Program-made: the position numbers and the translations under genes
Source of the DNA: Ochotona curzoniae
Lineage: Eukaryota; Chordata; Mammalia; Lagomorpha; Ochotonidae
Direction of reading: 5' to 3'
DNA: 64,000 nt
Assembly: GCF_017591425.1 (NCBI RefSeq)
Contig: NW_024466512.1
Span: 23,613,501-23,677,500, forward strand
Shown here: in pieces, positions 7,390 through 48,710 of the stretch
Layout of the letters: every line of letters starts with the position of its first letter
How positions within the stretch are numbered: the first letter of the stretch is position 1
Notes under the pieces: generated by a model
What the model was told of the DNA's origin: nothing
What the model saw: the letters and a program-made list of their open reading frames with translations, nothing else
The model's database searches: none

Positions 7390-7402
7390 GACCTGTTCTT
7401 TC
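7390..7402. repeat. Left TSD of the composite element
   Basis: GACCTGTTCTTTC, repeated exactly at 10295-10307. It defines the left edge of a single retrotransposition event. Confidence 0.85.
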
Positions 7403-7420
7403 TTTCTTTCTTTTTTTTTT

Positions 7421-7850
7421 TTTTAAGTTTTATAAAATTTTATTTTGACATTCTTTACATAGTTGATTAGGGTAAGAAGGTTCAAGGGCTACATGAAAGT
7501 GGATAATACTAGTATGTTTTCCATATTGTTACCTTCATGTTTAAAAGGGGTTATTTAAGGGAGAAGGCCCACCCATTTTCCCACCCTCCCCAGGTCCCGG
7601 ATGTAGGGCATGCTCTGAGGTTCTTGCTCAAGTGGTTTTGATATTGCAACAGTTATGAATCGTTGTCAATCTTGCCACTCCAAGCACTATGAGGGCTTTG
7701 AAAAATCCACTGATTGACATAGTCCATCATAGCTGAGATGGTTGGTTGACCCGTTCTGTCTTCTCTCTTTTCTTCGTTAGGGTTTTGAGTCCAGCATTTA
7801 GATTAGGAAGATCTCCAAAGAAACTTCTTGTATGTGCTAACAAGTACAGG
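7421..7850 (-). mobile_element. 3' domain of the composite element with poly(A) signal
   Basis: This AT-richer segment lies between the GC-rich body and the tail. In sense it ends GTCAAAATAAAATTTTATAA and then poly(A). It does not match the pika-type L1 3' UTR seen at 0.2, 15.6, 17.9 and 49 kb, and the second copy at 46.8-48.7 kb lacks it. Confidence 0.55.
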
Positions 7851-9662
7851 GCCCGGCACCATCCATCGCTCCAATCAGCTGGTGGTTGCAGTTGCTGGGT
7901 TGGTTCTGTTTTCACTCCCGACTTCCACTGGAACCAATGGGTGTTGCAGTCCAGCCTAGTTCTGCCCAGCACATACTTGGCCCTCACATAAACCAGCGGG
8001 AGCTGCAGCCTAGGTTGGAGCGACCCACAATAACCCCCACCAGGCCCACCCCCTACCCTGGTTTGCCAGTAAGTGTAGCAGTAATCCAGTCTGTCCCACA
8101 CCCCATTCCACCCCAGCCGCTATCTTAGTTATCTTAGTTTTATGTCCTGTGGAAGTGGTAACCCAAGAGGGATGAGCCCACTATTTCCCTCCCAGGCCTC
8201 TCCCACTCCCAGATTCCAGTTGATGCTGCGTCTAAGCCCAAACAACCCTCGCCCACTTTAATTTTCTTTGCACCAGTAGGAATAATCCACCCAGCCCGGC
8301 TTTTCCCTGATCTGGTCCGCACGAAGCCCACAGGTGTGGTAGCTCTGCCTAGTCTGGTCTGCCCCCATCCCAGCCCATGCTCTCCTGCGGAAGTAGCTGT
8401 CCTGCAAAGGAACCCTCCCTTATTCCCCTGCCGGCTCTGCCCACTTCCTTTCTTGTTCTCAGGCTGGTAGGGCGCTGCGGTCCCTTCCGGTACAGGCAAC
8501 CTCACCTCGGCATTCCATAATGTGCACTAGTCTTTGTTGCGACCAACCCTAGGTCGACCCACACTGGTGCCTGGATTTGCCAGTGGATGACGTGGACAGA
8601 TTCAGCCTGGTCCTGCCCCCACGTCAGCCAATTGTATGCCAGTGGGTAGCTTTCCATGGCCTTTTCTGGGCTGTTTCCTATCATGTTTCTTGCGTTTACC
8701 TGCCGGGTCTGTGTCCTGCCAGAGGAGTTGCCCAGGCTCCTCCATCAGAACCTCTCCCAATGCCAGGTTTCACGCTTACCAGTGGGTCCATGAGCCAACC
8801 TTACTCAGTCCACCTCCTGTAATAACAGGAACTGTGGCTTTTCCTGACTGGCCTTCCACCCAATCTGGTTCTTGCTGTTGGATGTTCCAGCCCAGCCATG
8901 GTTTGTCTATACCCACATATGGCTCACACATGGCTCAGTAGGGGTTTGAGACCCTGCCTAGTCCATCCCACATCTGCCCTGGTCCTCCAGAACACCAGGG
9001 GGAGTCGGGGTCCGGCCCGGTTCGGTGCATCCAATCCCAGTCCACACTTGTGCCAAGGGAGACTACAACTGTTTCCAGATCAGAACGCAGCTCCCCTTCC
9101 AGGCCATGTGCCTCTTGGTGGGAACCTCAGCCCAGCTAGGGTTGTCCCCTTTGCTCCCCAACTGGGTCTGTTCCCAGCCATAGATCACTTGCCTGCCAAT
9201 GGATGCTCTGACTCAGCTTGGCACAGCTCCTCACCTGTCCCGACCTCTGCCTTAGACACTGTGGCTTAGCGTCCCTGGCTCCAACAGACCAGCAGGTACA
9301 AGAACCTAGCTCGGCAAGACCTCTGCTCCCTCCTGGTTTCTAGTTTTACTTGTGGGCTAAGGTTTGTTCAGTCGTGCCTAATCTACTCTGTTCCATTACC
9401 AGTTGACACATTGGCCAACTGTTGGAGCTACTTTTGCAGGACAGGCCCCAAGCCCTAGCTTCTGCATGACTGCTATTTGGTGCTCAGAATTATTAGTGAC
9501 TGAAAGTTTTGCTAAGGAAGAGTTACTGCCTGTTTCAGGTCCAAGAAGCACAATGGGTTCAACCTGGAGCGAATTAAGCAGCAACTCAAAGAACCAAATC
9601 CCCAGAGCTCCCCAGCAGGGCGGCCAGCAGGCAGAGCCTGGCACCAAATGGCGCACTGGCCG
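7850..9662 (-). repeat. GC-rich degenerate minisatellite-like body
   Basis: About 1.8 kb of C-rich (plus strand) sequence in which variants of CCAGTGGGTGCTG, AGCCCAGCCTGGTC and CTGCCCCCATCCCAG recur at irregular spacing. It is much richer in GC than the surrounding DNA. It is colinear in long blocks with 46860-48150, for example the phrases CTCTCCCAATGCCAG and CACATACTTGGCC, which fixes it as a dispersed repeat and not coding DNA. Confidence 0.7.
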
Positions 9663-9919
9663 CCCGGGGACAGCTCAGCACATGGCGGCTGTGCCCATGG
9701 CGGCTGTCCGGGATCCAGGCATGAGACGCCCCGTCCTGAGACCCACCAGCTGCCAGGAGGCTGCTGGAGGTTTAAATAACCCAGGCCCAAGGTCGCGCCC
9801 CTCCCAAATCCCATTCACCGCCCCATGAGGGCGGCGGGTGGGTCCCGGGCCTGCCCAGTCCCAGAGGCCTCCCCCTCGGTCTACTCACCCCGAAGGAAGC
9901 GGCCCCCGGAACCAGCAGG
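9663..9919 (-). repeat. Promoter-like monomer 1 (257 bp)
   Basis: The innermost unit of the array. It contains two GCCGCCAT cores (YY1-like on the minus strand, plus-strand ATGGCGGC near 9682 and 9698), one TATTTAAA TATA-like box (plus-strand TTTAAATA at 9771) and many intact CpGs. It differs from unit 2 by only a few bases, for example ATTCACC versus ACTCACC. Confidence 0.8.
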
Positions 9920-10176
9920 CCCGGGGACAGCTCAGCACATGGCGGCTGTGCCCATGGCGGCTGTCCGGGATCCAGGCATGAGACGCCCCGTCCTGAGACC
10001 CACCAGCTGCCAGGAGGCTGCTGGAGGTTTAAATAACCCAGGCCCAAGGTCGCGCCCCTCCCAAATCCCACTCACCGCCCCATGAGGGCGGCGGGTGGGT
10101 CCCGGGCCTGCCCAGTCCCGGAGGCCTCCCCCTCGGTCTACTCACCCCGAAGGAAGCGGCCCCCGGAACCAGCAGG
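9920..10176 (-). repeat. Promoter-like monomer 2 (257 bp)
   Basis: A full unit beginning CCCGGGGACAG on the plus strand, exactly 257 bases from unit 1. The same YY1-like pair and TATA-like box (plus-strand TTTAAATA at 10028) are present. Near-identity to unit 1 implies recent duplication or homogenisation. Confidence 0.8.
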
Positions 10177-10290
10177 CCCGGGGACAGCTCAGCACATGGC
10201 GGCTGTGCCCATGGCGGCTGTCCGGGATCCAGGCATGAGACGCCCCGTCCTGAGACCCACCAGCTGCCAGGAGGCTGCTGGAGGTTTAAA
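10177..10290 (-). repeat. Promoter-like monomer 3 (partial, 5' terminal)
   Basis: The outermost unit, cut at TTTAAA (10285), about four bases before the TSD. The break lies at the TATA-like box. That is where a transcript started upstream, or a 5'-truncated copy, could end. Confidence 0.75.
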
Positions 10291-10294
10291 AATC

Positions 10295-10307
10295 GACCTG
10301 TTCTTTC
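10295..10307. repeat. Right TSD of the composite element
   Basis: GACCTGTTCTTTC, identical to 7390-7402. Confidence 0.85.
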
Positions 10308-17130: not shown

Positions 17131-17965
17131 AAATGACAGGACCAAATTACCACCTATTTGTATTAACCATGTTTGTAAATGGTTTAAACTCATTGATCAA
17201 ACATCATAGATTAGTAGACTTGATTAAAAAACAAAACCCATCTATTTGTTGCCTACAGGAACCGTATCTCATCAACAAAGATCAGCGGAAACTATATCTC
17301 ATGGAGTTTGATGTTTTTGTTTTGTTAGTTTCATCTCTTCAAAACATTTTCTTCTGATTAAATTATTCAATGGCTCATAGATCATACAGTAGCATCATTT
17401 TCTTCAAGAATGTTCTTGATTTTCTTTTTCATTTCTTCAGTGACACACTGGTCATTCAGTAGCATGTTATTTATTTTCATGGCATTGTGAATTTATGCTT
17501 TTCCTCCTGTTGTTGATTTTGTTTTGTGGCTTTTCATTTAAAGGGATGTATAGTAACTGTGTAATGGAGACTGTCATATCTAGCAGCATGTTATTTAACT
17601 TCATGGCATTGTAAACTTCTAGTTTTCTTCCTGTTGTTGATTTTGTGTTGTGGCTTTTCATTTAAGGGGATATATAGTAACTGTGTAACTCAGACTATCA
17701 AATACAGACTTGAGGATACAATGCAGTATGCATCTCTACTTCCAGACAAAGATGGATCCCAATTAAACTGTTTACTATATCTTGATAATAGGGTGCTGGA
17801 CTCTTTGCCATTGTCCATGCCTGCAATGATGGACATAAGGTGTATAAAGAACTATACTGTAGTAATTATATAGGAGAATTCAGTGATAGGGGAGGGAATT
17901 GGGGATCGCATAAAGAAAATCCCATGATCTATGGAACTGTATCATAAAATGATAATAATAAAAAG
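17131..17965 (+). mobile_element. ORF2-less L1 derivative (HAL1-like), copy B, 5'-truncated
   Basis: It begins at ATTGCTAAAATGACAGGACC, the inter-ORF point also present at 14943 in copy A. It continues through the same ORF2 start, the same antisense-ORF2 segment (17.30-17.58 kb) and the same 3' UTR, ending GAACTGTATCATAAAATG and an AAT tail. It has an extra tandem duplication of the antisense module (about 17.46-17.58 kb and 17.58-17.70 kb). Spacing and divergence fit either an independent insertion of the same family or an old local duplication. Confidence 0.62.
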
Positions 17966-46338: not shown

Positions 46339-46440
46339 TAGAAACAGCTCATTTAACTTCTCTTTTTCCTATTTGAATGCCTTCTGTTTCTTTCTTTTGC
46401 CTAATTGCTCTTGCTAGGACTTAAAGAACTTTATTAATCA

Positions 46441-46840
46441 GAATTAGTGGATTGATACTCCTTGTTTTGTTTTCTTCCCCTCACTGCCAATGATTGGCTG
46501 GGGGAGTTGATCAATTTGTTCTGTTCTCCATCCTCTACCATTGTACCAGGTGTCCTCCAAAGGCTCCAATATACTACCATATCCTCCATGTACATTTGGC
46601 TATTCTGTCCTCTACTCCATTTGAGCCACTGAGAAGGCCCAGCTCTGACTCATCTACTCCCACAGTCAGCCCATGGAACTTGCAGTTTTCTCCATGGTCA
46701 GGGTTCTGAATCCAGTGGTTCAGTTGGTAAGGAATCACCCAAGAAATCCCATCTGAAGTCATCCCAGACCTGATTCTTGTGTGTGTTTGTCAATACAGGA
46801 CCTGACATAGTCTGTCACCCTGTACACACATTGGTAGTTG
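46441..46840. other. Unclassified sequence beside the GC-rich body
   Basis: It lies between L1 ORF2 and the body, at the position where copy one has its AATAAA-bearing 3' domain, but it does not match that domain. No coding signal. Confidence 0.4.
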
Positions 46841-48710
46841 CAATTGCTGGGTCAGTTCTGTGTCCAAACCTGTATTTTACGAAACCCGATAGGTGTTAGA
46901 GCCTAGCCCGATCATGCCCACCACATACTTGGCCTTCACATAAACCAGTGGGAGCTGCACTCTAGTCGGAACGACCCACAAAAATCCCCACCAGGCCTAC
47001 CTCCTGCCTGGTTCTTGTGCTTCTCAGTATGTACAGCAGACTGGTCCCATCTGTTCCACATCCCATTCATCTCTTGTACATGTTGATGGGTATTGAAGCC
47101 TAGTTCGTTCCAACCAAGCCCATTATCCAGTCCACACTGGTGCCAGTGGGTGCCACCATCTCTCTAAGCCATGCCTGCACTTGACAGAATTTGGTCCCTA
47201 TGCCAGCATCAGCCAGCTGATGCTGTGGCAAAGCCCAGTCAATCCACACCAACACTGGCTTATGCTTGTACCAAAAGGTACAGTCAGCCCAGCCTGGCTT
47301 TTCCCTGATCCAGCTTACATGTAGGCCATTGGACATGCTCCTGCCCAGCCTGGTCTGCCCCCATCCCAGCTCTCACGCTCACCAGGGAGAGTAGTGGCCC
47401 AGCAGGGAGAGCCTTCGCAGCCCCCTCACTGGGGCCATTTCTACCTCCCCCCAGTGTTTCATATGTGCTGGTTGGGTGCTGTGGCCCAGCCTGGCATAGC
47501 CCCTTCACTTTGGCATTGTAGCCTGGCCTGGCCAGGCCCACTCTCAATTCCAACTCATGCTGGTGGGGGGGGGTTAGAGCTTAGCCCAGCCCTGCCAGGC
47601 CCCAATCCTGGCCCTCATGTGGACTGACTGGTATTGCGCCCTGACCCGACCTGACCCACACTCCATTCAGGCACTTGGATTTGCCAGTTGGTGATATGGA
47701 CTGATGCAGTCTGGCCCGCCTCCAACCTGCACCAAATGTATGCTAGTGGGTGCAATATTTTGGCCTGGTCTGGGTTGCACCCCATCTTGGTTCTTGCACT
47801 CACCTGCAGGGAGAATGTCCGAACAGAGGAGTTCCCCAGTCTCCTTCATCAGGATCTCTCCCAATGCCAGATCTCGTGCATACTGGTGGATCCATAGGCC
47901 AACCCTACTTAGTCCATCTCTTGTCCTGGCAGGAACAGTGGCCTTTCCTCATTGGCCCTCAACCATTCTGATTCTTGTTGTTGGGTGCTGCAGCCCAGCC
48001 AAGCCTGATTCATACCCAGACACAGCTCACACATAGCTCATTTGGGGTAGAGACCTGATCTAGCCTGTCCTATGCCTACCCTGGTTCTCACGAGTACCAG
48101 TGGGTGCTGGATTCTAGTCTAGTCTGGCGCATCCCATACCTACAACCTCTCCACTGGACTTACTCCCTGCCCTGGATCTCGCGTTGTCCTGCTGGTCCTG
48201 TGGTCTGGTTCGACAGGACTTGTCCCAAGTCCCAGCACTTGTCAGGTAATGCTGCAACCAGCTTGCCCTTCTTCTGGCTCATGCCTGTACCTGTGGATAT
48301 AATTGGCTACTCTAGCCTGGCTCTTCCCTTAACCCAGTTCACATGTAGGCCAACGGGTGTTGTAGCCCTGCCCAGCCTTGTCTGCCCCAGTTCTAGCTCT
48401 CATGCTCGCCAGCATGAGTGGTGGCCTAGCAGTGGAGTTCCCGCTATTCCGCTACCAGGCTCACCCTCACCATCCACACTGCCCTAGTTTTGCGTGTGCT
48501 GGTAGGTGCTGCGGCCTAGCCTGGTATGGCATGTCTCGCCTTGGCATTTGCTGGCAGGTGCTATAGCCTGACCTGGCTCAGTCTGCCCCCATTTCATCTT
48601 GTGCTGGTTGGAGCTGCTACCCAATCCAGCACAGACAGCCCCCAGTCCCAGTCCTAACATGAACTGGCTGGTAATGTGGCTATACCCAGCCTATCCTGCA
48701 TCCTATATGA
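46841..48710 (-). mobile_element. Second copy of the GC-rich element body, older
   Basis: Colinear with 7860-9030. Matching landmarks in the same order are AGTTGCAATTGCTGGGTC, CACATACTTGGCC, AAACCAGTGGGAGCTGCA, GGATTTGCCAGTTGGTGAT, CTCTCCCAATGCCAG and TAGCTCATTTGGGG. It lacks the 257-bp monomers on the right and the poly(A) domain on the left, and CpGs have largely decayed. Degenerate CCAGTGGGTGCTG phrases recur. Orientation is taken from the first copy. No protein is encoded. Confidence 0.65.

What the first reader, a model, noticed from the sequence alone, without database searches (positions are those of the whole stretch)
7390..10307. SVA-like composite retrotransposon with its own monomer promoter array
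A 2.9-kb unit is precisely bounded by the 13-bp repeat GACCTGTTCTTTC, carries AATAAA plus a poly(A) tail at one end and tandem CpG-rich monomers at the other, and has no recognisable ORF1 or ORF2. Its 3' domain differs from the local L1 3' UTR. It was therefore moved as an RNA by someone else's machinery, presumably L1. The architecture (5' array, GC-rich VNTR-like middle, A-tailed end) parallels primate SVA without evident sequence relation. I know of no named lagomorph family like this.
Basis: partly seen in the sequence, partly recalled or inferred. Interest (0 to 1): 0.85.

Follow-up and report, generated by a model that had tools for sequence, protein, structure and literature searches.

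The report
L1-driven noncoding element with monomer promoters
This 2.9-kb stretch is a young jumping element that codes for no recognised protein and has hundreds of relatives in this mammal's genome; it seems to carry its own row of repeated promoters and to be copied by the machinery of another element (L1), losing promoter units as it jumps.

Summary
A 2,892-bp minus-strand unit lies between exact 13-bp target-site duplications (TSDs) at an L1-type site, with an A-tail at one end, 2.4 tandem 257-bp CpG-rich monomers at the other, and no Pfam domain. The window's genome (2.08 Gb) settles the family question: the monomer-tether junction occurs at 239 places, the exact 36-nt 3' end at 98. Of 19 fetched loci, 17 carry the whole architecture at 95-99% identity, without ORF2. 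Of 18 insertions with TSDs, 15 begin within 3 nt of one site, 32 nt after the first T of TTATTTAAA; four carry an extra G. So the monomers look like TATA-driven Pol II promoters and the RNA is probably moved by L1 in trans. Each start lies behind its own TATA box, so each copy should lose a promoter unit: 8 of 40 tether copies have none left, others about 10-30 monomers. Two L1s with intact ORF2 share nothing with it, so it is not a deleted L1. It works like SVA/LAVA but is no member. No RNA was examined, and whether the family already has a database name could not be checked.

The parts
7390..7402 (-). 3' target-site duplication (sense GAAAGAACAGGTC)
   Evidence: exact 13-mer, 2 places in the window
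7403..7424 (-). A-tail with GAAA units
   Evidence: sequence
7439..7444 (-). AATAAA polyadenylation signal
   Evidence: sequence; present at the same place in the 9 copies whose ends were printed
7425..7814 (-). 3' domain (U2481-2870)
   Evidence: 40 of 40 scored places (2594 first-look candidates) match nearly whole at >=98%; exact 36-mer of its end at 98 places
7815..9534 (-). GC-rich body (U761-2480), degenerate, period about 60 bp
   Evidence: old relatives in window 46420-48710 and L020, L022, L023, L025
9535..9661 (-). tether between last monomer and body
   Evidence: 40 of 40 scored places (2489 first-look candidates) at 95-100%
9662..10290 (-). array of 257-bp CpG-rich monomers (2.4 copies)
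   Evidence: 165 matches in the genome, a lower bound
9771..9779 (-). TATA-like TTATTTAAA of the last promoter unit
   Evidence: sequence; -32 to -24 from the clustered 5' end
10028..10036 (-). TATA-like TTATTTAAA of the upstream promoter unit
   Evidence: sequence
9747..9747 (-). inferred transcription start in last monomer (U548)
   Evidence: 5' ends of 0-TATA copies L051-L053, L055, L056, L059, L060 within about 3 nt
10004..10004 (-). inferred transcription start in next monomer (U291)
   Evidence: 5' ends of copies with one TATA unit
10295..10307 (-). 5' target-site duplication
46420..48710 (-). old diverged relative of the body, incomplete
   Evidence: 63-74% identity; no TSD found

Best explanation
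The unit is one copy of a young, apparently non-coding, L1-mobilised retrotransposon family of this genome. Pol II starts a capped RNA inside a 257-bp monomer, 32 nt downstream of the first T of TTATTTAAA. The RNA runs through tether, body and 3' domain, is polyadenylated after AATAAA, and is inserted by the L1 endonuclease and reverse transcriptase acting in trans on the A-tail. Because the start lies downstream of the TATA box of its own promoter unit, each copy loses at least one promoter unit. Long arrays must be rebuilt in DNA, presumably by unequal exchange, or else the line dies out in promoterless copies. Shown from sequence: the family, TSDs, nick sites, clustered 5' ends, copies with 0 to about 30 monomers, no recognised protein domain, no sequence shared with the L1 UTRs tested. 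Inferred: transcription, L1 as the actual mover, loss per jump as a process, array regrowth.
For: Copies: 239 places with the monomer-tether 34-mer at <=2 mismatches, reversed control 0; 98 exact 3' ends, control 0. Architecture: 17 of 19 fetched loci run from monomers to the 3' end at 95-99% identity to the unit; copies differ pairwise by 0.3-4.7%. TSDs: 13 insertions of 10-19 bp (A-runs add to some lengths) and 5 more of 12-17 bp; random genomic pairs of stretches share >=10 nt in 0.65%; the printed nick sites are mostly T-rich and L1-like. 5' ends: 15 of these 18 within 3 nt of the start, 4 with an extra G; 20 of 24 partial monomers printed end within 7 nt. Eight of the 40 tether copies have no TATA unit. 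About two GCCGCCATG motifs per monomer; in mouse Tf monomers YY1 acts through a GCCAT core (PMC11602158, passages). Many uninterrupted L1 ORF2 frames of 1279 or 1294 aa among the 150 scored in the same genome, so a possible mover exists.
Against: No RNA or activity data. Three of the 18 TSD insertions start elsewhere: this window's copy and L021 at or upstream of the TATA box, L054 12 nt upstream of the start. Four of the 24 partial monomers also end elsewhere, and the first monomer of the C906:55305780 array ends almost whole (query 254) with no partial piece listed. L015 gave no TSD and L011 an ambiguous one; L051's TSD is mostly an A-run. One 60-aa ORF in the body is shared by 18 of 19 rows; descent explains it, but coding was tested only by Pfam. 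Array regrowth is inferred from long arrays only. GCCGCCATG could simply be a CpG-island motif.
Confidence: 0.87

Rival explanations
1. Internally deleted L1: an L1 5' UTR fused to an L1 3' UTR, moved by its parent.
For: A 5' monomer array plus tether is the layout of mouse L1 (PMC11602158, passages). One old relative (in L025) has about 50 nt at its extreme 3' end resembling the start of an old L1 3' UTR (score 55, best of 200 shuffles 39).
Against: The 5' UTR of an L1 with an intact 1279-aa ORF2 frame, and the first ~570 nt of the 5' UTR of one with 1294 aa, are not monomeric and match nothing in the unit; the 3' UTR fetched for the first matches only in poly(A) and one chance 12-mer. In 20 ORF1-bearing loci only two short chance-level matches (24 and 37 nt) were found. 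No L1 domain in six frames.
Confidence: 0.05
2. Processed copies of one host long noncoding RNA whose gene has a duplicated CpG-island promoter; the copies are dead pseudogenes, not a self-renewing line.
For: No recognised protein domain; A-tails; splice-donor-like sites in most monomers.
Against: Copies themselves carry up to about 30 promoter units and fall into groups 0.3-4.7% apart; an older copy with the same layout and nearly the same start is 80-89% identical in tether and body, so many masters over a long time are needed. No parent gene was searched for.
Confidence: 0.06
3. A known but differently named repeat of lagomorph libraries (for instance an unclassified or LTR-labelled entry). 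This concerns the name, not the mechanism.
For: Not testable here: Repbase and Dfam are not held. The lineage looks old and common enough to have been noticed.
Against: The 10 pika families under 1% divergence listed by Jurka et al. 2011 are by name one C-SINE and nine LTRs (PMC3183009, passages); the listings of eight paper searches show no such element.
Confidence: 0.35

Closest known systems
SVA / LAVA / PVA / FVA (VNTR composite retrotransposons of hominoids)
   Same: Non-coding, 5' repeat array, GC-rich repeat-like middle, distinct 3' domain, A-tail, insertions of L1 type; for the known families L1 mobilises them in trans (PMC4432496, passages).
   Different: No CT-hexamer array, no Rfam match and so no SRP/Alu-like part found, 257-bp TATA-bearing monomers instead, very degenerate ~60-bp middle instead of 30-50-bp VNTR, and another mammal (lagomorph by recall).
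Mouse L1 (A, Tf, Gf) 5' UTR monomers
   Same: Tandem promoter monomers separated by a tether from the rest; GCCAT core as in Tf monomers (PMC11602158, passages).
   Different: No ORF1/ORF2; TATA-like box at -32. No sequence comparison with mouse monomers was made.
HAL1 (half-L1; name recalled and seen in PMC3183009)
   Same: Non-autonomous L1-related element; HAL1-like elements are in the same genome.
   Different: HAL1 codes for ORF1; this unit has no recognised domain and shares no sequence with the 20 ORF1 loci beyond chance-level matches.

Membership tests
L1-mobilised (TPRT) non-autonomous retrotransposons | variable-length TSDs, L1-type nick, 3' A-tail | tested here: met
   18 insertions; L011 ambiguous, L015 none found
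L1-mobilised (TPRT) non-autonomous retrotransposons | dispersed copies with common ends and no reverse transcriptase | tested here: met
L1-mobilised (TPRT) non-autonomous retrotransposons | mobilisation by L1 proteins shown in cells | not testable with these tools
   needs a retrotransposition assay
VNTR composite (SVA/LAVA) | 5' CT-hexamer repeat | tested here: not met
   only the 257-bp array is found at the 5' end
VNTR composite (SVA/LAVA) | Alu-like (SRP-RNA-derived) domain | tested here: not met
   no Rfam family at gathering score anywhere in the window; no direct comparison with an Alu sequence
VNTR composite (SVA/LAVA) | central GC-rich tandem repeat | tested here: inconclusive
   weak ~60-bp periodicity: 8 of 300 shuffles reach it in the unit, 1 of 300 in an old relative
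L1 | ORF1 and ORF2 | tested here: not met
   0 Pfam families in 6 frames; in 19 rows from tether to 3' end the ORFs are 60-165 aa, one of 60 aa shared by 18 rows
L1 | UTR sequence shared with the genome's L1 | tested here: not met
   whole 5' UTR and 3' UTR of one L1, first ~570 nt of the 5' UTR of a second
HAL1 | ORF1 without full ORF2 | tested here: not met
LTR retrotransposon / ERV | terminal LTRs, fixed short TSD, no A-tail | tested here: not met
   no terminal repeat beyond the TSD, TSDs of 10-19 bp and A-tails
Processed pseudogene | derived from one spliced host gene, without promoter | tested here: inconclusive
   most copies seen carry promoter monomers, which speaks against it; a parent gene was not searched for

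The most novel reading that the evidence does not exclude
An undescribed, recently active mammalian SVA-equivalent that arose independently of primates and lives by a promoter count-down: TATA-bearing monomers whose start sites lie behind their own TATA box, so that each jump costs a promoter unit and only copies whose arrays re-expand in DNA can found the next generation.
Probability: 0.45. Interest if true: 0.72.

Novelty: new variant of a known kind. Interest (0 to 1): 0.62.

Why it matters
If right, L1 parasites of the SVA type are not a peculiarity of apes, and the loss of a promoter unit per jump can be read directly in the genome: the number of TATA monomers left in a copy bounds how many more generations it can found unless the array regrows. 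That makes promoter renewal in monomer-bearing retrotransposons testable by counting. The genome also holds many L1s with an uninterrupted ORF2 frame, so the likely mover can be studied beside its parasite.

Tried and rejected
External collections gave nothing: phage records, viral contigs by a protein that turned out to lie in a C-SINE-like repeat and by two DNA patterns, bacterial and archaeal genome contigs, the protein database with one monomer frame (2 candidates, none scored). No Rfam family in the window. No Pfam family in the unit or in the old window relative. I first took the 3' end of the old window relative for a different 3' domain; a copy in L022 contains that stretch and then a diverged form of the unit's 3' domain, so I do not claim variant 3' ends. 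I looked for splice-like deletions: the gaps at the start of L011, L012 and L025 lie at the edge of the extracted segment and are not evidence. L019 (monomers only, beside an exon matching Pfam tRNA_int_endo) was considered as the origin of the monomer; it lies inside a C-SINE-like repeat without an A-tail and is more likely a secondary insertion. Genome-wide counts of TATA units and of 3' ends with mismatches could not be obtained.

Rows dropped before counts: from the 13 TSD insertions, L018 (same insertion as L016), L010, L013, L025 (5' end outside the stretch), L011 (ambiguous TSD), L015 (no TSD), L019 (no tail). From the 24 partial monomers I left out three pieces that do not reach query 1 (C388, C1030, C457) and two nearly whole ones (query 1-254 at C906, 1-252 at C587); the listing was itself cut. 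Of the six 5'/3' pairs, L057 has an upstream monomer, so its 5' end was not in the stretch and no TSD was found; the TSDs of L056 and L058-L060 were not tested.

The species is inferred: the C-SINE-like repeats look lagomorph, probably pika, from recall only; no call identified the organism.

Full report
What is there. The sense strand is the minus strand. Between two exact copies of GACCTGTTCTTTC (7390-7402, 10295-10307) lies a 2,892-bp unit: 2.4 tandem monomers of 257 bp, a tether, a GC-rich body, a 3' domain with AATAAA, and an A-tail. U coordinates count from window 10294 downwards. CpG observed/expected is 0.525 in the monomers, 0.265 in the body, 0.205 in the window. No Pfam family appears in six frames and no Rfam family in the window.

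The family. The window's genome, G000 (2.08 Gb, 1389 contigs, unnamed), was searched. The monomer has 165 matches, a lower bound because only 39 of 1049 candidates were scored. The stretch from the start site through the tether matches nearly whole at 95-100% in 40 of 40 scored candidates of 2489; the other matches among the 162 are single monomer pieces. The 3' domain matches at 98% or more in 40 of 40 scored of 2594. Whole counts: monomer-tether 34-mer with at most 2 mismatches, 239 places, reversed control 0; exact 36-mer of the 3' end, 98 places, control 0. Seventeen of 19 carry monomers, tether, body and 3' domain at 95-99% identity to the unit; L023 carries them up to U2789 with an insertion in the tether and another 3' end; L019 has monomers only. 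From tether to 3' end 19 rows (18 loci, L018 being a duplicate of L016, and the window) differ by 0.3-4.7%, median 2.2%; their ORFs are 60-165 aa long, and one of 60 aa is shared by 18 of 19 rows, as descent alone would give at this divergence.

Mode of movement. Thirteen insertions (12 loci and the window) have exact TSDs of 10-19 bp, some lengthened by A-runs, with nicks such as CCTTTT/AATTTT, TATTCT/AAATCA, TGTTTT/ATATCA, TCTTTC/AATCCC. Random genomic stretches of the same sizes share 10 nt or more in 0.65% of cases. Five further insertions have TSDs of 12-17 bp; that of L051 is mostly an A-run. These are the marks of target-primed insertion by L1 (established knowledge). Among 150 scored reverse-transcriptase places many have an uninterrupted frame of 1279 or 1294 aa.

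It is not L1 as far as tested. An L1 with a 1279-aa frame at C11 has a 5' UTR beginning GGAAGGGAAGATGGCCG, an exact TSD, no monomers, and no similarity to the unit in the 5' UTR; its 3' UTR matches only in poly(A) and one chance 12-mer. The first ~570 nt of a second L1's 5' UTR (1294-aa class) are 84% like the first, and again unlike the unit. The best ORF1 hits are HAL1-like: 19 of 20 loci also hold the start of the endonuclease, L048 has an ORF1 frame of 343 aa and no long frame after it, and the 20 loci match the unit only at chance level; they were not scanned for reverse transcriptase with Pfam.

The promoter. Of 24 partial monomers that I read off the printed part, 20 end within 7 nt (19 of 23 without the duplicate; chance under uniform ends about 1e-26). 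Against this, four end elsewhere, and the C906:55305780 array ends at query 254 with no partial piece listed. Of 18 TSD insertions, 15 begin within 3 nt of the first G of GGTGGGTCTC; four (L009, L012, L016, L026) carry one G more than the template, as expected from reverse transcription up to a cap. The first T of TTATTTAAA is 32 nt upstream, a normal place for a TATA box (established knowledge). Monomers hold about two GCCGCCATG motifs each; GGGGTGAGTA, a splice-donor-like site, is found in all 19 loci, and GGCGGTGA[A/G]T in 14 of 19. In mouse Tf monomers YY1 acts through GCCAT (PMC11602158, passages).

The count-down. Because the start lies behind the TATA box of its own unit, a daughter lacks that box. 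Copies fall into classes: none, one, two, three, and long arrays of 10 full monomers at C232, C881 and C658, 14 at C1385, about 30 at C780. Of the 40 tether copies, 10 had no upstream monomer listed; fetched, 8 of them indeed have none (7 begin at the start site, L054 12 nt upstream) and L057 and L058 have one. The long arrays at C232, C881 and C780 also begin at the start site, as listed. Regrowth by unequal exchange is my inference. An older copy (L025:6680-9614; 80% in the tether, 84-89% in the body) begins about 4 nt inside the start, has a 13-bp TSD with one mismatch, and no TATA unit, so layout and start site are old.

Age and depth. In 273 kb of other sequence held (flanks of the loci, ORF1 loci, the window) six clear and one weak old relatives occur: L020, L022, L023, L025, L029, window 46420-48710, and L017. 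That is about 22 per Mb; it is not a random sample, but if it were representative the genome would hold tens of thousands of old copies. The window's old relative shows the same period of about 60 bp as the unit's body.

Against this reading. There is no RNA evidence. The window's own copy begins GATTTTTAAACC, at the TATA box, L021 before it, and L054 12 nt before the start. L011 and L015 gave no clear TSD. The sources of the parts are unknown, so 'composite' is unproven.

Known or new. Papers were searched eight times with answers; the listings (titles and starts of abstracts) name no such element. Jurka et al. 2011 list ten pika families under 1% divergence, by name one C-SINE and nine LTRs (PMC3183009, passages). 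A 2026 study of L1 chimeras has no occurrence of pika, Ochotona or lagomorph in its main text and one of rabbit (PMC13174262, term search and outline). Repbase and Dfam are not held here, so a prior name is quite possible. The mending of facts in this version did not change my odds.

Noticed in passing
window 46420-48710 (-): Old diverged relative of the unit's body, with an AATAAA near its 3' end and no TSD found.
   Followed up: partly
L028-L048: HAL1-like elements: open ORF1 frames (up to 343 aa in these loci), with the start of the endonuclease in 19 of the 20 loci L028-L047 and no long frame after ORF1 in L048. Window 14.4-18.9 kb holds degraded pieces of the same kind, with the 124-bp duplication at 17461-17688.
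   Followed up: partly
G000: Many L1 ORF2 frames of 1279 or 1294 aa without a stop; one L1 of each class was looked at, and both have AGATGGCCG (YY1-like) near the start of the 5' UTR.
   Followed up: partly
L019:149-595: About 1.7 monomers alone, starting at the family's start site, inside a C-SINE-like repeat next to an exon matching Pfam tRNA_int_endo; no A-tail, some repeat bases missing. Looks like a patch not inserted by normal target priming.
   Followed up: partly
L025:9614-9670: An old copy has after the 3' domain about 50 nt like the start of an old L1 3' UTR (score 55, best of 200 shuffles 39).
   Followed up: partly
G000:C780:1704484-1712210 and C292:10802553-10807883: Arrays of at least 20-30 monomers, partly of a variant with a period near 253 bp in which about 28 bp do not match.
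   Followed up: no
monomers of L009-L027: 5' splice-donor-like sites on the sense strand: GGGGTGAGTA in all 19 loci, GGCGGTGA[A/G]T in 14 of 19.
   Followed up: no
L016 and L018: Same insertion, same TSD, on contigs C1030 and C457: allelic contigs or a segmental duplication.
   Followed up: no
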